This document shows positions 1 to 20,500 of a stretch of DNA of 64,000 nucleotides, in pieces. The position numbers and the translations under genes were made by a program. The DNA is taken from the NCBI GenBank assembly GCA_013176395.1, contig JABMLP010000015.1, forward strand, positions 558,001-622,000, given 5' to 3'. Origin of the DNA: Venturia oleaginea (Eukaryota > Ascomycota > Dothideomycetes > Venturiales > Venturiaceae). How positions within the stretch are numbered: the first letter of the stretch is position 1; each line of letters opens with the position of its first letter. A model generated the notes under the pieces. It saw nothing but the letters and a program-made list of their open reading frames with translations. It was not told where the DNA came from and ran no database searches.

Positions 1-1930
1 GGGTTGTTGCTGCAGTTTCTGCCATGGTCGTTTGAAGGTCACCTCTTACACAGAGACGTGCTTTGAATTTGGTGACATAGCCGTCAGAATCCGATTTGTA
101 CGAGAATACCCACATCATAGGGAGTTGCACAATGCTGGGATCCATCTCAGAGGGTGATAGAGGTTTGAAGGTTCCTGCACGGCGGAGGTGGTTGAATTCT
201 TTCTCTGCAGCTGCAATGAACTGATCGGCGTATGGATGGCGAATCATTTGATGCCAGTACTTGGGAACTGGAGGCATGTCGCTAACATGAAGCCTGGTAG
301 TGGACGTAGCAAGAGAGAGGGCAAAGTTGAAGCCTACAAGATAGCCGGACAACTCATTGACAGCAGTGATATGAGCCTGATGACGAGTCCTCTTCCCAGA
401 AATGATGTTTCTGATGTCAGTTTCAGCACCAACTGCGGTGTATTCCTCAGAGAACTCTGCAGTATAGGAGGTTCTAGCAGTGGGAGCTGATGATAGTGCT
501 GGGGAAGGAGGTTGTACTTGACTGGGTTCAGCTTCATTTTCTCCGCTTTCCTTCTCATCATCGCCATCCTCATCAGATTCTCTGTCACCGGATTGTTCTT
601 TGTTACTTTCAGTGTCATAGGAGTCAGTGGTTGACTCTAAAGGTAGAGTGGCAGATGGAGTTGGTGATGGAGATGGAAGCTGAGATTGAGGTGCAGGAGC
701 TTTTGGCGAAGATGATTGGGCAGGAGAGGAGGGCTGAATTGGTTCAGTTACTGAAATTTCACCAAAGTTTGGTGGAGTGAACTGATAAGTGTCAAGTAGA
801 GACTCTTCTATTCCATCGTTGAGTGAGGGTAATGGCTGCTGGACTTCAATAGCTTCTTCAACCTCCATGATGATGCCCAAGTCTACTTCGGAAGGTTTGT
901 AGAACTTGGTGGAGTCAAAGGTAACATCTCGGCTTCTGACCACTCTCTTTTGAGAAGGAACCCAGATTCTGAAGATGTTTGATGAATCGTAGCCGACAAG
1001 GTAACCAATATGGGTGCGAGGTTCCATTTTGTCGAGTTTAGCGAGGCGATACCGTAGAGGATAGGCTCTGCAGCCAAAGATTTCAAGATGTGCAAGATTT
1101 GGTTTACGGCCAGTGATGCATTCGTAGGGCGTTTTCCATCCAAGGCGCCGAGTTGGCCAAAGATTGAACAGATATGCTGCACATTTAACGGCATCGGACC
1201 AGAGATTGTGTGGGAGTTTTGCGTGTATTATCATTGAACGAGCGATACGGCAGAGAAAATGTCCTGCTTTCTCAGCCCCTCCATTTTGGGCTTGAGTGTG
1301 TGCTGCAGAGGATTCTCTTTTGATGCCGTGTTGAGCAAGGAATGAATTGAGGCGTTGAGATCTGAAATCATCAGTTTGAAGGAATCGGATCTTGTAACCC
1401 ATTGACTCAATGAGCATTACAAACTCGATGATTGCGTCAACAGATTGGTGCTCTTCCCAGTGATTGGTGACTATATGGTAGCCAAACGTATCACATACCA
1501 GATGAGTTGAGTAGCGATTGTGGTCAATAGAGATTCCATGATGGACCATATCTACTGACACCCTCTCAAATGGGAGTCCAACAGCAACATCAGTATGCCC
1601 AAAACGTCTTGAGACCTTTCTTTGACCCTTGGCTAAGGAGCAGGACTCACATTTGGCATGATGTGGCTTGTGGTTGTTGGTTGTGATGTGTACACCTGTG
1701 GTATTTGCTTGTAGTTTTGTCAACGCCGCAGGAGAAACGTGACCAAGCATCTCATGCCATTCAAGAGCTGTTGCTTTCTTTGGCGGTCGAGATTGTGTTG
1801 TTTGTGAGGCTAGAGCTGCAGCAGCAACACCTTTGAAGCCAGTAGTGAGAGCAGTTGTCTCGAAATCGGCTGGAGTGTTATTGGGATAACATGTCGGTAA
1901 CGCAGTATCAGGTGATGTGATGGCGGATAG
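1..1930 (-). CDS. Copia Pol: integrase and N-terminal reverse transcriptase (partial)
   Basis: The frame of the Gag-protease ORF continues without any other stop from 1930 to the window edge. It shows the integrase HHCC zinc motif (WHEMLGH followed by CESC), the DDE core (VSVDMVHHG; FLQTDDFRSQ; then AQNGGAEKAG supplying the Glu), the Copia C-terminal region (GCRAYPLRYRLAKLDKMEPR), a long acidic Ser/Pro-rich linker, and the start of the RVT_2 reverse transcriptase (MMWVFSYKSDSDGYVTKFKA, then RLCVRGD). No start codon is evident immediately after the TGA, which favours expression as a fusion to Gag-protease. RT catalytic residues and RNase H are outside the window. Confidence 0.9.
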
Positions 1931-1933
1931 TCA

Positions 1934-3601
1934 GCTTGAGGATTCCCTGGCGATGACCCACATTGGGCCTTCTCTCTGAAAGATAATGAGTGGTTTGTCG
2001 TTCTTGGTGATGCGATTGAGGCGAAGATTGACATCAAAACCTTTGTCAATCAAGATAGAGAGAGAGATAAGATTTGTGCTGAAGCCTGGAGCATAGATAA
2101 CCCCAGATAGCACCAGGAAGCTGGGACCATTTGGCGTAGTAACCGGCAGTTTGACAGTGCCCTTAGATACAACGTGAGAAAGACCAGTGCCGGAGGTGAT
2201 AGTCGATCCTATTGGCATGGTGGATTCGGTCGTGTAATACTGAAGGCTGTTGGTGACGTGATGAGAGGAAGCTGAATCAAGATACCAGATATTGGAATGG
2301 ATGGTGATTTGAGACGAGAATGCGGCGGCAATAGGGTTACCCAGGGCTTCTACCACTGAAGAGTAGTATGCATTGATATGAACTGGCTCAACATCAGCAA
2401 CTTCTTCAGTGGGAGGGATGTGGATAGACGTAGCGTTTGCCATGATATGCTCTGGTGCCGCAGTCGATGGTAATGAGGCATCGTTTTTGAGTCTCTTAAC
2501 TGCTTTCTCATTCACTGTCTTGATGATGCCTACCAACTTCTTGTTCTTTTTGATGGCTCCATCAATCTTACTTTTCTTTGCCGGATTTTCAACCCAGTAG
2601 GGAGGGCGAATACATTCCACAATGTGGTTACAGTCACTCCAAAAGTGGACTTCTCCGCAGAGACATTCCTTTGGTGTGCGAGGAACCCGTGGGCCGGTAG
2701 AAGAGGCTTTAGTGTCAGAAGGTTCATCTTGGAAGGTAGCAAATGAAGCTAGAGGTGAATTTTGACCATGTGTGCGATGCTCAACGACTCTGAGACGTCG
2801 TGTATTGCGGAATCGGGCGACTACTTTGTCAATTGGAGGGAGGTCTAGGCCGTCGGAGAGGAGGTTGTTCATGAAGGCTTCTTGAAGGTCAGCCCAGTGG
2901 CTATCATACCGGCGAACTGCTGTGATGAAGTCAAAGATAGGCTGTTCATCTTCAACCTGACCAAGATTTAGTTTGACCGCTTGACCATGGGTGAACACCC
3001 ATTTGTTAATCCAAGTATCGACGTCGCTGCCTTTGGGACCAATGGAGTTAAGGTACTGATATTCGCGGCGAACCTCAATTTTGAGGGCGCGATCAGTAGG
3101 GCAAACATGCTCCTTCAAAGATGCCATGATCTCCTGAACTGTGTTGCAATCAGTAAGATGTCCTGCGTATGCAGCGGAGACGTTGGCGTAGATTTTGTTT
3201 TTCAGCTCCTTCATTGCCTTAACTTTCAAGTCGTGCTCAACTTTTTCAATCCTGAAAACACCCAATTCGTACTCAAATTCCCACCGTTTTGCCGCGTTGT
3301 CAGGAATGCCAATTGTTGCTGGCGTAAGGCCAACGTCGACGGGTAGTGGGGCCCTTCGGAGGTACAACAGAGGTTGCTCTGTATAGGCTTGAGCAGGGGG
3401 AGGGTTCTGGGCTTGCTGAGATGGAGTAAGAGCAATAGGTTTGGGCTCAAAATCTGGATCAATGTATTCCCAAAGATTGTCGGTAATTGCTATTTGACGA
3501 ATCCAATCGCGGAAGGCGTTCCACTTTGTAGGGTCCGAAAGGAAGATTTCAAGGGAGTCTCCCTTGAGCTTTGACGATGCTAATGCAGCTGACATCGTCA
3601 T
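1934..3601 (-). CDS. Copia Gag-protease polyprotein (first ORF, ends at an in-frame TGA at 1931)
   Basis: About 556 residues from the ATG at 3601 (a second ATG follows two codons later); the frame is open further upstream but contains no other ATG. The N-terminal half is a Gag of the UBN2/retrotran_gag type, with the KLKGDSLEIFLSDPTKWNAF segment near the start. A compressed zinc knuckle (CLCGEVHFWSDC, spacing C-x-C-x3-H-x4-C) follows at about two thirds of the length. A retropepsin-like aspartic protease comes next, active site WYLDSASSHHVT (Copia consensus DSGAS/DSGAT). The ORF ends in the linker after the protease at TGA followed by CTA. The same frame then continues as integrase, so Pol is probably made by readthrough or, alternatively, this copy has a nonsense mutation. 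Confidence 0.9.
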
Positions 3602-3781
3602 GGTGGTGGGTGGGGATCTTTTCGTATATTCCGAGAGGATGTTGGATCGATGGCAGAATCGTTGTAAACACTGAAAGATGGGCTTAATGGGACTAGTGTG
3701 TATGGGGTTTGATAGAGGGGGTTGTATCAATACACGGCGGTGAAACCAGAAAGGGTAAGGTGTGTTTACGAGGGTAGGCAA

Positions 3782-3795
3782 GCCGGGCTCATAAC
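3782..3795 (-). other. Primer-binding site complementary to the initiator tRNA-Met anticodon arm
   Basis: The minus strand reads GTTATGAGCCCGGC just inside the LTR. This is complementary to the anticodon stem-loop of initiator tRNA-Met (the stretch that contains the CAU anticodon), not to the tRNA 3' end. Copia of Drosophila and many fungal Copia elements prime from a 5' half-molecule of this tRNA. The exact match length depends on the host tRNA, which is not in the window. Confidence 0.75.
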
Positions 3796-3798
3796 TCT

Positions 3799-4003
3799 TG
3801 AATGATACACAGTGAAAAGATGAGGAGGATTAAGGATTGCATGAGGTTCATAATGAACCGGTGACCGAGCGATAGTTATACAGATGTGATTGCTTTGAAA
3901 TCAAAAGACGGGTACATGATTCCGACGGCTGTATGCCACCGATATCCACTTCGCGGCTAACTGAAATTGTGGTATCATCCAACAGCGGCTGTATCATCTA
4001 ACA
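3799..4003 (-). repeat. 5' LTR of the Copia element
   Basis: On the minus strand the segment starts TGTTAGATGATAC and ends with CA directly before the primer-binding site, giving TG...CA ends and a length of about 205 bp, short as usual for fungal Copia elements. The first 20 bases are followed by a close variant of themselves (TGTTGGATGATAC, 3972-3984). The outer end abuts coding sequence of the interrupted host gene. The other LTR is outside the window, so the boundaries rest on the TG/CA ends, the primer site and the split exon. Confidence 0.75.
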
Positions 4004-4261
4004 GCAACATGTTTAAAGCTGTGAAGATGTCTCAGCGCAAATCTTTGGAATAAAATCAGTCAAATTACCTGGAAAGACCTTAACGTTTTGGGCGGGAGTT
4101 GCAGTAAGCATTTTGGCATAGATCCGGACACCATCGCTGCGGAAGTGATTAAGTTTCGCCGGAAGTTCTACCAGAGGCAGTGGTAGCTGAAGGTCGGGAT
4201 CAAAGTAATTGATAATAGAATCGGGGCCTTTGAAAACATTGTTGAACGGGATTTCTGCCAT
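4004..4261 (-). pseudogene. PLP-dependent (cysteine synthase / tryptophan synthase beta-like) enzyme, 5' fragment cut by the Copia insertion
   Basis: Exon 1 (4261-4069) begins MAEIPFNNVFKGPDSIINYF and contains LPLPLVELPAKLNHFRSDGV and AKMLTATPAQNVK, the N-terminal signature of a fungal cysteine-synthase-like PLP enzyme. A 50-nt intron (4068-4019; GTAATT...CACAG) leads to exon 2, whose first codons complete the family motif (ALNMLL), and then the Copia LTR begins. Only about 70 codons remain here; the PLP-binding lysine and the rest would lie beyond the element, left of the window. Upstream in-frame codons up to 4294 lack an ATG, so 4261 is preferred. The ATP-grasp gene on the other strand starts about 1.06 kb away and probably shared its pathway. 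Confidence 0.72.
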
Positions 4262-8504: not shown

Positions 8505-10959
8505 ATGGCTCACAGGTCGTTGCTCGTGCTGTCGCTCGCTCTTGCGAACATGGCTGTCGGCCATGTCACCACTGGTCGTGCGGGTCATGGTCTTATCGGC
8601 TTTGGAATTGTAGGTCAAAAGTCTGACACATGTGAAGTGCTGTTGTACTAACAATAACAGGAAATGTACAAGCCTGGTTGTGCTTACGCATGCCGCGCTG
8701 TACTTGCAAAGTCCTCGCTGAGCTGCACGCCCCATGAAGGGATGAATATGCCAGGAATGAGCCATATGGACGCCGAGACTGAGCCTGAGTGCTATGCCAC
8801 GGATGATGCCTTTCTCCAATCGCTCGCATATTGTATTTCAACTCGCTGCCAAGGAGTTCCAGCCTGGGAACTGGAAAGATACTGGAAAATGAATGTTGCA
8901 GGCAGGGGACAGTACGTCTCTCATTCGCAGTCAGAATGGTATTCAAATATAGCTGACCACGTCGCAGAGTACAGCCGGATCCTAAAGAAACATATCAGCA
9001 AGCTCTCGAGAAAGCAGGGACACCTACAGAAACGCTCGTCAAGGGCAATCCTCTGAATAAGACCAGCAAGATTCCAGATGATACTTATACTTCGAACTAC
9101 AACGCTCTGGTTATCTTTGAAGAAATGGAAATCATGCACGAGAGGAGTGGGTAAGTCTGTCTGGTTTTTTTTACGCGTTTTCTTCCCATTTGATAATCGA
9201 TGCAGCATTTTTGAAAGGAGTCTCTTACTAGGCATCGATGTTGCTATAGTCTTGGCAGATTTTGTACATCAGATCGCCGGAAACTCAGTGATATCGATCC
9301 CAAGTCTACAAGATCAGCCTGGTTCCCCCCAGCTGTAGGATGGGATGGGAGAGACATGATGACGGCTCCACTGTGTTGCAATGTAGAAGAAGCGGCATTC
9401 TAACATTGTCTCTCAGTATCATCCTTATCGTACTCGGCTTTGCGTTGCCAATCCTTCTTTCTTTGCTAAGATTTGTTCCATGGCCACAATCAATGGCTTC
9501 CAAGTTCAATGCCATATTCATCGATGCGCCCCTATTTGGTCGCCGACACAAACAACCCATTGGCAACATCGCGCATGTACCCACGCGAGGCCAGGCACTC
9601 TTCATCTTTTACATGTTTGCCATCAACGTCATCCTGGGAGCCATTTCTTTCCGATCCAAATCTCCCAACGCTTGGTTTGAAACTGTGACTGCCGAAATTG
9701 TCGGAGATGTTAACAATCGAATGGCTGTACTCTCTTTCGCAAATTTGCCGCTCGTCATACTGTATGCGGGCCGCAATAACATCCTGCTGAAGCTCACCAA
9801 CTGGTCTCATGGCACGTTTCTGCTTCTCCATCGCTGGCTGGCTTTCATTTGCACCTTGCAGGCTTGCCTACACTCTGCTGTTTGGCTACAGACCGACCTT
9901 GCAAACGGAACGCACTCCTCGGAAAGCAGATTGGGCTACTGGATCTGGGGGGCCGCCGCCACTGTCGGCATGTCCATCTTGTTCCCAACGTCCATGTTGC
10001 CCATCCGACAGAAGTTTTACGAACTATTCCTTGCCTGGCATGTCGCGATATCGATTATCATAATCGCCGGTTGCTACATGCACATATACCTACGCTTCGT
10101 TCATCAGTGGGGTTACGAGAACTGGATCTTTGTTGCTATAGCCGTATGGGGCTTTGACAGATTCGTGAGGGTGCTCAAGTTAGCTCGCAATGGTGTGAAG
10201 ACTGCAAAAATCACCGTCATTGACGAGGACTATATCAGAGTTGATGTTGAGGGTGTGAGTGGGGAAGGGATGGCCTATCTCTATTTCCCCACACTAACAT
10301 GGAGAGTATGGGAGAATCATCCATTCTCTGTTGCGGCGACTGTTCTCCCGTCGAACGACCACAAGACCCGCCATAGCTCATACACAACAACCGAGCTGAC
10401 GGACATGGAAAAAATTGGCGCCCAACAAACATCCGTGTCGAAGGCCTTCGATGGCGCCAGCGATGCGAACTCCTTGCACAAGCGTACTCGCAAGATTGTC
10501 GGACTCACCTTCCTCGTACGTACTCGTGGAGGGCTCACGGCATCCATGCGATCTTGCACTTTACTGCCTGTTCTCGTGGAGTCGCCATACGGATCCCACC
10601 CAGATCTCTCAGCCTACTCCCTCCTCATCGGTGTCGCCGGTGGCGTGGGTATCACCGCCGTCGCACCCGTTCTGCAACACCATCCCGGCCGCACCAAGCT
10701 CCTTTGGGGCGTACGAACGGCCGGTATTGTCGACGAGATGCGCGATCAACTGGCTGGCATCGACAAAGACATATTCGTTGGACAGAGGATGAACGTCGTG
10801 GAAGCGCTTGAACGGGAGTGTGTTGAGAAGGAGAGGATTGTTGTTGTTGTTAGTGGGCCGCCGGCTATGGCTGATGAGGTGAGGATGGCTGTTAATAACC
10901 TGGCGAGGAGCAAGAGAAATTTTTCGATACATTTGGTGGAGGAGTCGTTTAGTTGGTGA
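8505..10959 (+). CDS. Ferric/cupric reductase transmembrane component (FRE family)
   Basis: Four exons: 8505-8609, 8661-8911, 8968-9150, 9393-10959, giving 701 residues. Introns 1-2 are 51 and 56 nt (intron 1 has a perfect TACTAAC branch); intron 3 is 241 nt and its acceptor (9392) was chosen because it joins HERSG to GILTLSLS in frame. The protein has a signal peptide, an extracellular N-terminus with GCAYACRAVLAKSSLSC, several membrane helices with the heme-ligand histidines (LLHRWLAFICTLQACLHS and AWHVAISIIIIAGCYMHIY), the FAD motif HPFS, the NADPH motif GVAGGVGITAV, SGPPAMADEV, and the family ending EESFSW. It reduces extracellular Fe(III)/Cu(II) at the plasma membrane for uptake. Confidence 0.95.
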
Positions 10960-14542: not shown

Positions 14543-17500
14543 GGTGAAGACAAAGGTGGAAAAGCGGGAAGTCTATGGGGTATCAAATAGTCATGTAACA
14601 ATGAAAGAACGGAGGCCAGCCGTGGTAGAATGAAGTGGTATAACGAACACGAAGCGTCGACAGGTGGTGAAGGTGAGGAATGAAGGATCCGAAGATGTTG
14701 GTGCTCAGAATTGAATAGAAAAAACCGGGTCGAAGCGCGAGCAGTTTGTGAAGGGGCTCTCGGCTACTACATGATCCAGAATGCAGACGAAAAGAGGGGT
14801 GAGAGGATACTGGAGTGTCGACTGAAGGCCGTAGATGTCGAAACAGGAGAGTTTCGAAGTTGAAGTAAGGAGCTTTCACGTTATAATGCTCAAACATTGA
14901 CTGCTCAGCAATGGGGGATCGTCGAGGGGGAGGGCACCTGGCACGTAATGGAGGCACTGGGAGGGCAGACAGATGGGCTTGATGGGCGGGGGGAATACTG
15001 TAATGAGGTTCGAGCAGCAGCCATCATCGACCGGCTCTCTTTGCGCGAACCATTTCTGGCCCCTGCGATGCAGATGATGCGCCGTGCGTTGCACCAGAGA
15101 GTACTTGAAACATGCTGGCCGAACATCGTGAGCACACTAAGCCCGAGACACGCTCTCTGATTGGGCCATGTGAATGCGGCTCCCAATTTCCCCCTCTGTC
15201 GCAATGAATATCCATTCCCGATTCATGATGCTTTTTACCAGCTACCACAGTATAGTCAGTACTCGGCCTTCCCAAGCCTCCGTACATGGTCAACAGACCT
15301 GCACAGCTGCGATGTGTTGCTTACTATAGTACAGCCCACATGCATGATGTATGCCAAGGAGATCATGCTCCTCCAGGGGACTAAAAGCCCTACTAGGACT
15401 AGCACTAATGCACCTGGTGTGCCTATTCTTGTACCCCAAATCCGGCTTCACCATGTTCCAGCTCCCGTGTGCTAAACAAATGCTGCGAGGTTACAAGGCG
15501 AGGACTTCCTGAATCCTGGTCTAACACCCGTTAAGATGACATCCGCTCCTTCAGTCCGTCTTCTTGGGTGGTACGTGGTAAATGCAACAAGGGCAAGCGA
15601 CGCATACGAAGACCGAGATGAATCAATCGCGACTCGAGGGAGCATTCCCGTAATATCAACACGTCGCCTGGTAAGGCGATGAGTTCCTTCTTTCATCTAG
15701 ATCTAGACGAAATGCTCGCCGTCGGTGGTTACATCTTGGTCGTACTGAGTACAGACCACAAGAACGGATCTTTGAATCGAAACGAGGAAACATGTCACAA
15801 TCATCTTCATATGTCCCGAGCCACTGCCACGAGCCAAAACAGGACAGATGGAGCAGAGGCCTGATGTTAATGCCAAACATGCAATCATCCCACATGCTTC
15901 CAAACCTCTAGCTCACAGAAGAAACTCACAACACCACGCCAACCGCGCAGAAACAGATCGCAAACAAAACAGAACAGACGAAACTTTTCCACCCACAACT
16001 TCTCCCAAAGTTTGCAGTCTTCGGCCGAAGGAGCGTGTATCAACTTGCCAGATCTTCAGAGCAAAGTCAAGCTGTTTTGAACATTGACTTCATATATAGG
16101 AGCATTCTTAACCATCTCTTCATCAGCCAGTCCTGTAATGGATCCATTCCCTCATTAATCGCTTTCCATTTGTTCCTTACATCAACATTCCGTTTCGTCG
16201 AAACTACTCTCCACCTTCTAATACGATACTAAACCAGACCAAGATATGGAATTGAAAACAATCCAAACCTCATCATTCCCACCTCACTCCAATCACCGCC
16301 AATACCCCAACTCATCCCAACCATTCCATTCTAAGCTGTCAATTCCATAACCTCCATCCCCGCCCAAAGCATCCCATAAACCCCCCCAACAAACGCCCAC
16401 AACAAAATCACACCAATCACCCACCCTTATCTCTCCTTCAAAAACCACCATCCCTTAAACATCCATCACACCCAACCCCTCACAAAACTCTAGATACAAA
16501 CCCCCCCATCCCCCCAAATCAAACCAAAAAACACAGCACCCGAAAAATATCTCCCAACAACCCATCTCCATACCCAATCCAACCAACCAATCAAAGACAA
16601 CAAAGATCACAAAAAAACAAAAAAACGAAAGCACAAACCATTCCAGCAAAAACACCACCGTCCCCCCTCTCCACCAAAAAGTACAGAATCCAAAAGCACA
16701 AAAGAAGATCGGAACCCCGCCCTCCCCTTTCAAAGTTACCTACATCCAGGATGTAAGCAAAACAGACATCTACACACCTCCTACCCACCCACCCACCCAC
16801 CTACCTACCTCCTACACAGCTTCGAAAATACCATGTATTCCAAATAAAAGAGAGAGAGAGAGAGAGAAGAAAGCCCAAACCTCACGCAAACCTCACACAA
16901 CAGACGCAGATAAGCATACTCACAAACCCTTAAACCAACTCACCACCAAAGACCAAAGCAAATTCATCTTCGAAAAATCTCTTTGAAATTCCATACTCAT
17001 TACATTCATTCCCCCATTCCCCATGTCTATTCCATTCTCTTCTTTTCTACACACAAAGTCCCCCCATTCACCATACTTTCCATATTCATACAAAGTACAA
17101 ACACCCAACACAAGATAAAGCTTCCACCAGCCCCAGCCAAAGGGAACCAACCGACTTTGCCGTACCTCTTCCTTCCCCCAAGCTTACACCATCTATCCAC
17201 GCTGCATACAGCTCACAAGACCAAAAAACGGGTATCAAAAAAAAAAAAAAGGAAAAAATAACATCGACAAAGAAAATAAATACAAGTGAAAGGCCCAATC
17301 CAACCGGGTCAAAGAGCGAAGGATAAGAATCGAAAAACCTCAAATCCAAGAAAAGGGTCAAGAAAAGAGTGTCCCCCCATCCAATCCAAAATCGTTGGGC
17401 CACGTTCGCTGAACATCCGAGTCTTTCGTCTCAGTCTTTGGCCGCTGAAAATTACCGCCAAAATGCATGCACCGTCCATCGTCTTTTGTCCAGATCTTTT

Positions 17501-17588
17501 CATCGAAAACTCCGACATCAAGCGATATGCCCTGGCTAGTACTCCAAGAAACCCACAACGTCCATCTTTTCACAGTCCAGATTCTTTC
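14543..17588. other. 3-kb intergenic region with strong C/A strand bias and microsatellites
   Basis: No coding sequence recognised. From about 16240 to 17290 the plus strand is very rich in C and A and almost free of G, and the ORFs there are low-complexity. Simple repeats: CCCA/CCTA type at about 16780-16810, (AG)n at 16849-16867 and an A13 run near 17239. The left half holds the glycosyltransferase promoter, the right end the kinesin 3' UTR. Confidence 0.5.
16849..16867 (+). repeat. (AG)n microsatellite
   Basis: About nine AG units in the C/A-biased intergenic stretch. Confidence 0.85.
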
Positions 17589-20500
17589 TCAACTGGCAGT
17601 CGGTTCAGAGATCCTCACACTCGTCTTTCTCTTTCCTTTCATAGCGCCACTGCCCGTTCGTCCAACAGAGATAGCGCTGTCGACACGCAAGTCCTGAGCC
17701 GAGTCCCCTCTCTTGAGAATCACAGGCCCACCATTCATTCCCTCACTTGAGCTTTTCCGATCGATGCTCACTTTGCGGTCGAGCGAACCCGAGGTGGCGT
17801 TGTGGACACGTTCAGTGATCATTTCGTCCAGAAGTTTCGTCATCTCATCAACACTTTTGGTCTTCTTCTCAGGAACACCCGTCATCGAAATTCCTAACGG
17901 CGACTGAAGACCGCAAGATATCCTCGGGCTGGTGGCGCTGATACGCGGAGAAGCACTGTGTACTCGCACTCCACCACCATTCATATGAGGCCGTGCCGAA
18001 AGACTGGCTGTTGACGAGTTACTCCGTCGGTCGACTGGGCTGGAGTGCGCAGTGTCCACGGTGAGGTCGGCTACATCACGCTTGCGGGCTGCCGAGCGCA
18101 ATGCAGAGACCATTCGTTCTTTGTCGTCCAGACGGGCACGAAGTTCTGCAATCTCTCCGTCCTTCTCACGAACAACTGCTTCCCATCCTCCGTCCTCGCC
18201 CATGACCGTCCGTTGACCAAAGGACATGCTCACACGGGAATGGCTCGATCTTCGTGCTTGTAATAATCGTTTCTCCAGGGTCGAGATATATCGATTCTTA
18301 TCAGCAAGATCCGCCTGCAGTGCCCGGACTTGCAGGGTAGCGGTTGCGTTACCATCGCCATTCTCACCCATTGAGTCCTCCTCGTCCTCATGGCGAGCTT
18401 CGTTGATTGTCGTGGAGGCCGTAGATTGTCGGATTGACCGCATGGAGCCGGAGGAGGAATTCCGTCCCAGTATTGGAGGAGAAAGTGTGGCCGTCGAAGA
18501 TCTTGCAGACTGCATGCCGCTCATCATCATCATATCGCCATTCGTCATGACAGACTGCCTTCCATTGTTGCTCATCTGCGACATCGAACGTGAATTGTTG
18601 ACACCAACCGATTTGGAACTCAGGATCAATCGGTTGAGATGTTCTATCCTCTCTTTCAGTGCCGTCCGTGCCAATTGCATCTCAAGCATCTGCTCTTCAT
18701 GCCGTCGTTTGTGTTCCAACTCTTTGACTCTAATGTCCTCCACTGTCTCTATCGGTGATTCCTCCTCCTTCTCGGGCGTCTTCTCTTTCTTGCCTTGGGC
18801 ATTGAGCTGCTTCTTCAATTCGTCAATCTCCATTCGGTATCGATCGAGGAGAGCGCGAGATCCAGCATCCCCCGCGCTTCCAAAAGCGTCTTCTGCCTTC
18901 TTCGCGTGGCTGACAATGTTGTTCTTGGCCCGCGAGGCAAACTTGAGCGTGTTGAGGGTTTCGAGAGTGTGGTTTTGTGCCGATGCCGTGCTGCCTGCAG
19001 AGCCGATTTGAATTGTACACAGAATACTGATGAGCGAACTTCCTTGGAGCGCGGGCTGCAGTAACCGAGTGAGTTTGCTGTCTCGGTACGGCAGATGTTT
19101 GCCGTCCTTGTCCACTGACAATTTGCCAATAACTGTTCCCAAGGTGAGCAGCGACTTGTTGATGTGCGCGCCTTCGGTCCGTCGTTCTTTGTCCTCAGCT
19201 GCCCGTTCGGAGCCCGCCAGATCAATCAAGCTGAGCGTGGACACACGGACACCGCCTGGGAGCAGTGCTTGTCGTTTACTCTCCGCGCTGGAATTCACCG
19301 AGATCCGCTCTCGGCTTTCCACCACAATCTGTACCACGGCGTGAGAGCGTGATGACCGAGCGTTGAATTGAGTGCCGGCCACTCGTCTTGCAAGGTCACC
19401 CCTGGCAATGACCCGCAGAAGTTGGGTTGGACTTTGGACAATCTCTTCCTTTAGAGGAGTTGCATAGACTCCTCGCTTGCTGTCCTCCCTCAGCTTAATC
19501 TCTTCTTGTGCTACGCCGGGAGCAGGCTGTCCAGCCAGGAGGTCGTGGATTTTTTCGTTGTAAATTTCGAGGTAACTCACACGGAGGAGGAATTCTCGCT
19601 GCGGCGTCTCTCGAATGAAGGAGAAAATGTCTGTGATGGCAAGGGGTATTATACCGGGAGACGTGGCAGTCCCTTGCATGGAGAATGTCTTTCCTGTTCC
19701 GGTCATACCGTAGGCAAAGACGGTTCCATGGTAGCCTTCCATGACTCTCCGCACTAATCGTTTGGCAGAGGCATCGTACACTTTGCCGTTCTTATCGTTG
19801 ACGGAAAAGACGTTGTCTATGATGATAATTAGCAAGAGTCATTCACAATTGTTCGATACCCACCATAAGAGTAATCACCGCCCTCCCGACCGCGATATGC
19901 GATATGGGAGTGACGTCCATCTACCAGCCATTCCACATCGCTCTTATCTCGTTCGGCAGGCGCTTGGTCGGGCCGCACTCTGACACTGACAATGACGTTT
20001 CCCTTGCCATCTTTACCATGTTTCTCGTCAAATAGCTTGTCCTCCTCGGCCGTGGTTCTCCCTCGCGACTCGTCGACGTCGTTGTCGATTGCAGAATCAG
20101 GTGGTGAAGAGGATCGGCTCGCAGGCGGAGATGGTAGGCTCATCAAAGACACGGCATTGCCTCCACCGCCGTTCAAAAAACTGGTTCCATTGGAGTACGT
20201 GGTTCGCAGTGAGCTCTGGCGCATGGCCGGCTGTCGTAGAGAGGCTTCGTCGCCTCGTTTCTTTAGTCCCGAAGTGCCTCGCGTTCCTACGTCTGAATGT
20301 CGTTGCAAGGGCGCAGACAATGGTCCATCGGGTGATGTGGCGCCAGATGTTGGCGGCTGAGGGAAAGCGCCGATACTGATGGTCTTGCGCAATTTTCCGG
20401 CGGGGATTGGAGCAGGCATATTGCCTGGGAGAGTCGAAGTTAAGGCATGATTCTTTTTCTCTGAGCCCGGTCGCTGGGGAAGTGCTGAGGAGGCAGAGCG

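What the first reader, a model, noticed from the sequence alone, without database searches (positions are those of the whole stretch)
1925..1936. Copia Gag-protease and integrase-RT separated by one in-frame TGA in the readthrough context TGA CTA
Seen: a single frame runs from the Gag ATG (3601) to the window edge, broken only by AGC TGA CTA at 1931. The stop falls exactly in the linker between the aspartic protease and the integrase zinc finger. Known: UGA CUA is the context that gives efficient ribosomal readthrough in fungi and animals (peroxisomal isoforms of glycolytic enzymes). Inference: this element sets its Gag-protease:Pol ratio by stop-codon readthrough, unlike typical one-ORF Copia elements or frameshifting Ty1. 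A random nonsense mutation would not be expected to land both in the domain linker and in this context.
Basis: partly seen in the sequence, partly recalled or inferred. Interest (0 to 1): 0.78.

Follow-up and report, generated by a model that had tools for sequence, protein, structure and literature searches.

The report
Leaky stop codon in fungal retrotransposon
A family of fungal jumping genes keeps one special "leaky" stop signal between its shell-plus-protease part and its copying enzymes, very probably so that the cell makes many shells and few enzymes from one message; the trick is known from other elements, but this exact form looks like a new variant.

Summary
The window's Copia element (minus strand; 5' LTR 4003-3796, Gag ATG 3601) has one in-frame stop before the window edge: TGA at 1933-1931, followed by CTA, between protease and integrase zinc finger. 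In the host genome (a Venturia relative, judging by one gene) all 14 same-family copies read carry AGC TGA CTA TCC; 8 of 14 have fully open Gag-PR and Pol frames. A sister subfamily (about 80% DNA identity) has in-frame TGA CTT, 2 of 2. A far group (about 55% aa identity, synonymous sites near saturation) has TGA CTA TCC G, 4 of 4. Five other Copia loci of this genome lack the stop. UGA CU is a published sufficient readthrough signal in a fungus. No consistent RNA structure follows, and no AUG lies between stop and zinc finger in the far group. Best reading: programmed UGA readthrough sets Gag-PR against Gag-PR-IN-RT. It has precedents: Tca2 and VdLTRE5 (Copia, UGA), Tj1/Tosmo (gypsy, TGA CTA/CTG). 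Apparently new: UGA CU in Copia, kept across lineages, with protease on the Gag side. Readthrough itself was not measured.

The parts
4004..4008 (-). target-site duplication GTTGC (5 bp)
   Evidence: the same 5 bases follow the 3' LTR of this insertion in L009; matching 5-bp duplications in 5 of the 6 other loci with both LTR ends in view: L014, L023, L024, L025, L027, not L012 (read by eye)
3796..4003 (-). 5' LTR, 208 bp, TGTTAG...TTCAAGA; 0 differences from the 3' LTR of the same insertion
3785..3795 (-). likely primer-binding site GTTATGAGCCC, directly after the LTR; resembles the anticodon arm of initiator tRNA-Met (half-tRNA primer type; recalled, not tested)
   Evidence: sequence
1931..3601 (-). 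Gag-protease reading frame, 556 codons plus TGA
2036..2287 (-). aspartic protease domain (Pfam Pol_BBD; motif WYLDSAS, Asp codon 2278-2276)
   Evidence: that the motif is the protease active site is recalled
1931..1933 (-). in-frame TGA proposed to be read through
1924..1933 (-). conserved ten-base word TGACTATCCG (stop plus seven 3' bases)
   Evidence: identical in lineages A, C, D: 10/10 positions against 9/60 upstream and 4/53 downstream, ungapped; lineage B shares 6/10
1..1930 (-). Pol frame (IN and start of RT), open to the window edge; 1095 codons in all
1628..1780 (-). GAG-pre-integrase / HHCC zinc-finger region (residues 51-101 of Pol)
1304..1573 (-). integrase core (rve, residues 120-209; below Pfam's cut-off)
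899..1114 (-). SH3-like domain of the polymerase (residues 273-344)
1..124 (-). start of Copia reverse transcriptase (RVT_2 from residue 603)

Best explanation
The element is a Ty1/Copia retrotransposon whose RNA is translated mostly to the UGA, giving Gag-protease. A minority of ribosomes misread the UGA because it is followed by CUA, and continue into integrase-RT-RNase H. Leaky termination so keeps Gag-PR in excess over Gag-PR-IN-RT-RH. Shown here: one in-frame UGA at a fixed place between PR and IN, UGA CU kept in four element lineages, frames on both sides open in 8 copies and constrained between lineages, and no AUG or common intron found that would bypass the stop in the window family. 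Inferred: that readthrough occurs, its rate, the inserted amino acid, and that the ratio is what selection acts on.
For: (1) 14/14 same-family copies with a junction have TGA CTA; in 8 of the 14 both Gag-PR (556 codons) and Pol (1095 codons) are open. (2) Sister subfamily B (about 80% DNA identity): in-frame TGA CTT, 2/2, beside an 18-nt length difference. (3) Distant group C and D, about 55% aa identity in Pol: TGA CTA TCC G in 4/4 loci that have a junction. dS between A and C or D is 1.6 to not computable, so ten identical bases are not mere lack of time. (4) dN/dS between lineages after the TGA is 0.08-0.21 (IN) and 0.15-0.34 (linker plus finger) where computable. (5) First in-frame AUG after the TGA is codon 61, inside the zinc finger, in A, and codons 123 and 128, beyond it, in C and D. 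(6) Recent movement: identical LTRs and a 5-bp duplication at this insertion, and duplications at others. (7) CUA after UGA suffices for readthrough in Ustilago maydis, mainly through its first two bases (PMC4207609). (8) Five other Copia loci of this genome have no stop in the 80 codons read at the border.
Against: No expression data. The B and C copies and 6 of 14 A copies have further breaks, so they report an ancestral state only. The 14 A copies are not independent: the evidence is four lineages in one genome. Lineage B lacks CTA TCC G (6 of 10 bases shared) and has an in-frame AUG at codon 15, before the finger. Within lineages dN/dS reaches 0.54-0.87, as for decaying copies. Tca2, a Copia with UGA, showed no readthrough from its junction in a yeast reporter (PMC2194720 abstract). 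The only relative read as DNA from outside this genome has one open frame without the stop (L038).
Confidence: 0.86

Rival explanations
1. Pol is made without reading the UGA: from a shorter RNA with its own promoter, by internal ribosome entry, or by start at a non-AUG codon after the stop (as debated for Tca2).
For: A minor promoter was found in the Tca2 gag-pol junction (PMC2194720 abstract). Lineage B has an in-frame AUG at codon 15 after the stop.
Against: In A the first in-frame AUG is codon 61, inside the finger; in C and D it is codon 123 or 128, beyond the finger. Conservation sits on the stop and the seven bases after it, not further down. A non-AUG start cannot be excluded by sequence.
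Confidence: 0.08
2. A chance nonsense mutation fixed in a master copy and amplified in trans or by hitch-hiking.
For: Twelve of the 14 A copies are at least 99.5% alike to the window copy over the aligned part, and defective forms of the family have moved too.
Against: The same stop in four lineages, three of them with the same seven following bases in spite of synonymous divergence near saturation; all 8 copies open on both sides have it and no junction read has a sense codon; Pol is constrained between lineages.
Confidence: 0.03
3. An intron that removes the TGA from part of the RNA.
For: Drosophila copia sets its Gag-plus-protease product against full length by splicing (PMC11835246 passages). 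One candidate intron exists in D.
Against: Frame-keeping introns of 45-250 nt over the TGA with GTRNGT or GTANG donor, CTRAY and YAG: 0 in the window copy, L017, L018 and L021, 1 in L029 (the other loci were not scanned). Longer or otherwise signalled introns were not tested.
Confidence: 0.03

Closest known systems
VdLTRE5, Copia of Verticillium dahliae (PMC3441728, passages read)
   Same: filamentous ascomycete Copia; [quoted passage not shown] the authors infer a leaky stop and note the absence of CARYYA
   Different: LTR 159 bp against 208; the bases after its UGA and the side on which its protease lies are not given in the passages seen, and its DNA was not compared here
Tca2, Copia of Candida albicans (PMC2194720, abstract and Background read)
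   Same: Copia with in-frame UGA between gag and pol
   Different: purine-rich spacer and predicted pseudoknot after the stop; junction gave no readthrough in S. cerevisiae; with a gag of only 972 bp (PMC7175516 passage) its protease is probably on the pol side (inference)
Tj1, Tcry1, Tosmo1-3, Ty3/gypsy of fission yeasts (PMC10085805 and PMC4600332, passages read)
   Same: TGA CTA or CTG between the reading frames; Tj1 without its stop gave virtually no integration
   Different: Ty3/gypsy, not Copia; stop between Gag and a Pol that includes the protease; preceded by an invariant GAA
Drosophila copia (PMC11835246, passages read)
   Same: makes a separate Gag-plus-protease product that processes itself
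   Different: does so by splicing
[quoted passage not shown]
   Same: UGA CUA; three bases after the stop suffice
   Different: host enzymes with short peroxisomal tails, not a polyprotein ratio

Membership tests
Ty1/Copia LTR retrotransposon | integrase before reverse transcriptase; RVT_2 | tested here: met
   rve at 120-209 (E 0.00015, below Pfam's cut-off), RVT_2 at 603-823, E 6.9e-33
Ty1/Copia LTR retrotransposon | LTRs and short target duplication | tested here: met
   208-bp LTRs, 5-bp duplication
UGA CU stop codon readthrough | UGA followed by CU | tested here: met
   16/16 A and B copies, 4/4 C and D loci with a junction
UGA CU stop codon readthrough | conserved coding frame after the stop | tested here: met
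   dN/dS 0.08-0.34 between lineages where computable
UGA CU stop codon readthrough | extended protein is made | not testable with these tools
   no expression data
structure-dependent readthrough (MuLV, Tca2-like) | stable RNA structure 3' of the stop | tested here: not met
   z 0.09 and -0.26 (A), -1.75 (B; 10 of 200 shuffles fold as well), -0.49 (C), 0.08 (D); pseudoknots were not modelled
Tj1/Tosmo gypsy readthrough group | Ty3/gypsy domain order and GAA before TGA CT | tested here: not met
   Copia order; codons before the TGA are AGC, AGT, AAT, AGG, TGG
splicing-controlled copia | intron at the Gag-PR/IN border | tested here: inconclusive
   only introns of 45-250 nt that remove the TGA were sought, in 5 loci: 0 in four, 1 in L029
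VdLTRE5-like Copia | UGA between Gag and Pol in a fungal Copia | tested here: inconclusive

The most novel reading that the evidence does not exclude
A whole clade of fungal Copia elements uses a structure-free ten-base readthrough word, UGACUAUCCG, placed after the protease, so that Gag-PR is the main product. Recoding in translation here does the job that splicing does in Drosophila copia, and it may explain the unexplained UGA elements such as VdLTRE5.
Probability: 0.6. Interest if true: 0.58.

Novelty: new variant of a known kind. Interest (0 to 1): 0.47.

Why it matters
How UGA-interrupted Copia elements make Pol is open: Tca2's junction failed in a reporter, and VdLTRE5 was reported to lack the known signal. 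This family offers a short, conserved, testable signal that matches a host readthrough motif, and a layout with protease on the Gag side. It also cautions annotators who discard such elements as broken.

Tried and rejected
A search of the protein collection with the Gag-PR piece gave no relative at E <= 1e-8 among 7992 candidates scored; its length limits exclude fused full-length proteins. Viral-contig scans with the Pol frame and with an alignment gave no relative. The genome-contig scan gave one, L038, on a contig filed under an Acidobacteria MAG: one open frame of 1588 codons, no stop at the border. P0002, the closest Pol homologue (58% identity, 1038 aa, metagenome), starts about 30 residues before the zinc finger, which would fit a stop upstream, but its DNA was not seen, so its junction is unknown. 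No solved structure matched the protease piece at E <= 10. RNA structure after the stop: no consistent signal; B is the strongest at z -1.75. Intron rival: one candidate, in L029 only, of 5 loci scanned. Passages of PMC3562529 and PMC5014426 held no Copia with such a stop.

Rows dropped. L001-L008 are shorter stretches of places also held in L009-L028 and were not counted again. Of the 20 loci, L019 and L020 lack the junction; L021 and L022 were read. Of the nine loci, L030 has unrelated sequence with other stops where the junction should be, and L032 has no protease match and an integrase match only from residue 185. Junctions read: 14 A, 2 B, 3 C, 1 D, 5 other Copia loci (L033-L037), plus L038. 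Of those five, L035 and L036 lie in loci with a stop elsewhere in integrase. Other places listed were not read; the genome search says its counts are lower bounds.

Full report
WHAT IS THERE. The minus strand of window 1-4008 is the first 4.0 kb of a Copia element: target duplication GTTGC (4008-4004), 208-bp LTR (4003-3796), Gag ATG 3601 and a frame with one stop to the window edge, TGA at 1933-1931. The rest lies outside the window; the insertion spans G000:C7:556381-562003 (5623 bp), and its two LTRs are identical. The Gag-PR piece (556 codons) ends with a Pol_BBD/protease domain with the motif WYLDSAS; the piece after the TGA has the GAG-pre-integrase finger, integrase core (weak), SH3-like domain and RVT_2. 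A ferric-reductase-like host gene at 9340-10959 is 79-83% identical to proteins of Venturia inaequalis, V. effusa and V. nashicola, so the host is probably a Venturia relative (one gene).

COPIES IN THE GENOME. A DNA search of the junction region gave 22 matches. Fourteen loci are the same family (A). All 14 have TGA CTA TCC. Gag-PR is open in 13 of 14 and Pol in 8 of 14; 8 of 14 have both. Two loci (B, about 80% DNA identity) have in-frame TGA CTT beside an 18-nt length difference. A protein search reached a group at about 55% aa identity: three loci C (L021, L022, L031) and one D (L029), all TGA CTA TCC G. Five other Copia loci of the same genome (L033-L037) have no stop in the 80 codons read around the border, and in four places (C36, C12, C1, C3) one open frame of 1558-1640 codons holds both the Gag-PR and the integrase match. 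An 18-row tree of the integrase region puts A, B, C, D and the metagenome protein P0002 in one group (98/96), apart from the five loci without the stop (98/97). The root is for drawing only, some rows are short and some outside branches long; with that caution, one old gain of the stop is the simplest reading. The junction state of P0002 is unknown.

IS IT SELECTED? Between A and C or D, synonymous sites are near saturation (dS 1.6 to not computable), yet the stop and the next seven bases are identical in A, C and D: 10 of 10, against 9 of 60 positions before and 4 of 53 after, in an ungapped comparison that understates flank likeness where lengths differ. B shares 6 of the 10. With the flanking rate 13/113, seven identical bases after the stop would come by chance about 3 times in ten million (my arithmetic; it ignores that Leu-Ser is also the shared peptide). 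Integrase after the stop shows dN/dS 0.08-0.21 between lineages where dS can be computed; within lineages the ratio is higher in several pairs of relic copies, up to 0.87. Recent movement is shown by the identical LTRs of this insertion and by 5-bp duplications. Seventeen further loci match the Gag N-terminus alone, 92% over residues 1-165, with near-equal scores. The two of these 17 that I read are a 1.88-kb deletion derivative with the same LTRs that lacks protease, integrase and RT, so it must have moved in trans. Among the junctions read, no same-family source of Pol without the UGA was seen; other Copia families of this genome cannot be excluded as helpers.

HOW IT WORKS. UGA CUA is enough for leaky termination in Ustilago maydis, and the first two bases after the stop matter most (PMC4207609). 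All four lineages keep UGA CU, TGA CTT included. No consistent stable structure follows the stop (pseudoknots not modelled). Start at a downstream AUG would cut into the zinc finger in A (codon 61) and lose it in C and D (codons 123, 128); in B an AUG at codon 15 exists. A short frame-keeping intron has a candidate only in L029 of five loci scanned. So I infer readthrough: mostly Gag-PR, some Gag-PR-IN-RT-RH. The rate and the inserted residue are unknown. The constraint on TCC G beyond the published core is unexplained, and B lacks it.

WHAT IS KNOWN. Drosophila copia makes a Gag-plus-protease product by splicing (PMC11835246 passages). Tca2 has UGA between gag and pol, but its junction failed in a yeast reporter (PMC2194720 abstract and Background). 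VdLTRE5 of Verticillium dahliae is a Copia with a UGA between GAG and POL, called very rare by its authors, without CARYYA (PMC3441728 passages). Fission-yeast gypsy elements keep GAA TGA CTA/CTG (PMC10085805 passages), and Tj1 without its stop gave virtually no integration (PMC4600332 passages). The listings of eight searches of the open library (four of them showed only part of the papers found) named no report of UGA CU in a Copia element; subscription papers, among them Gao et al. 2003 (not held), were not seen. Hence: a new variant of a known kind, moderately interesting, well supported by comparison and easy to test.

Noticed in passing
L039 625-2501, L040 566-2442; 17 loci: A 1.88-kb deletion derivative with the family's 208-bp LTRs joins the Gag N-terminus region to the C-terminal (RNase H) end of Pol. 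Two loci were read (99.8% alike); 15 more have the same kind of Gag match, so it may outnumber the 14 larger copies.
   Followed up: partly
L023, L025, L027: Three insertions with different target duplications (GAATC, GACTC, GTATG) share an internal deletion of about 0.92 kb, so this defective form too seems to have moved.
   Followed up: partly
L012 and L013 (G000:C14, about 497 kb and 445 kb): GTACC sits before the 5' LTR of L013 and after the 3' LTR of L012; the two opposed copies may have recombined and inverted the 50 kb between them.
   Followed up: no
window 1924-1927: TCC G after the CTA is as conserved as the stop in lineages A, C and D, although the published core needs only CU. Reason unknown.
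   Followed up: partly
L038: A fungal-type Copia (one open frame, 1588 codons) lies on a contig filed under an Acidobacteria MAG, probably mis-binned.
   Followed up: partly
window 16001-18000: Strong strand bias (GC skew -0.43, AT skew +0.22) at the edge of a kinesin-like gene (17589-19835).
   Followed up: no
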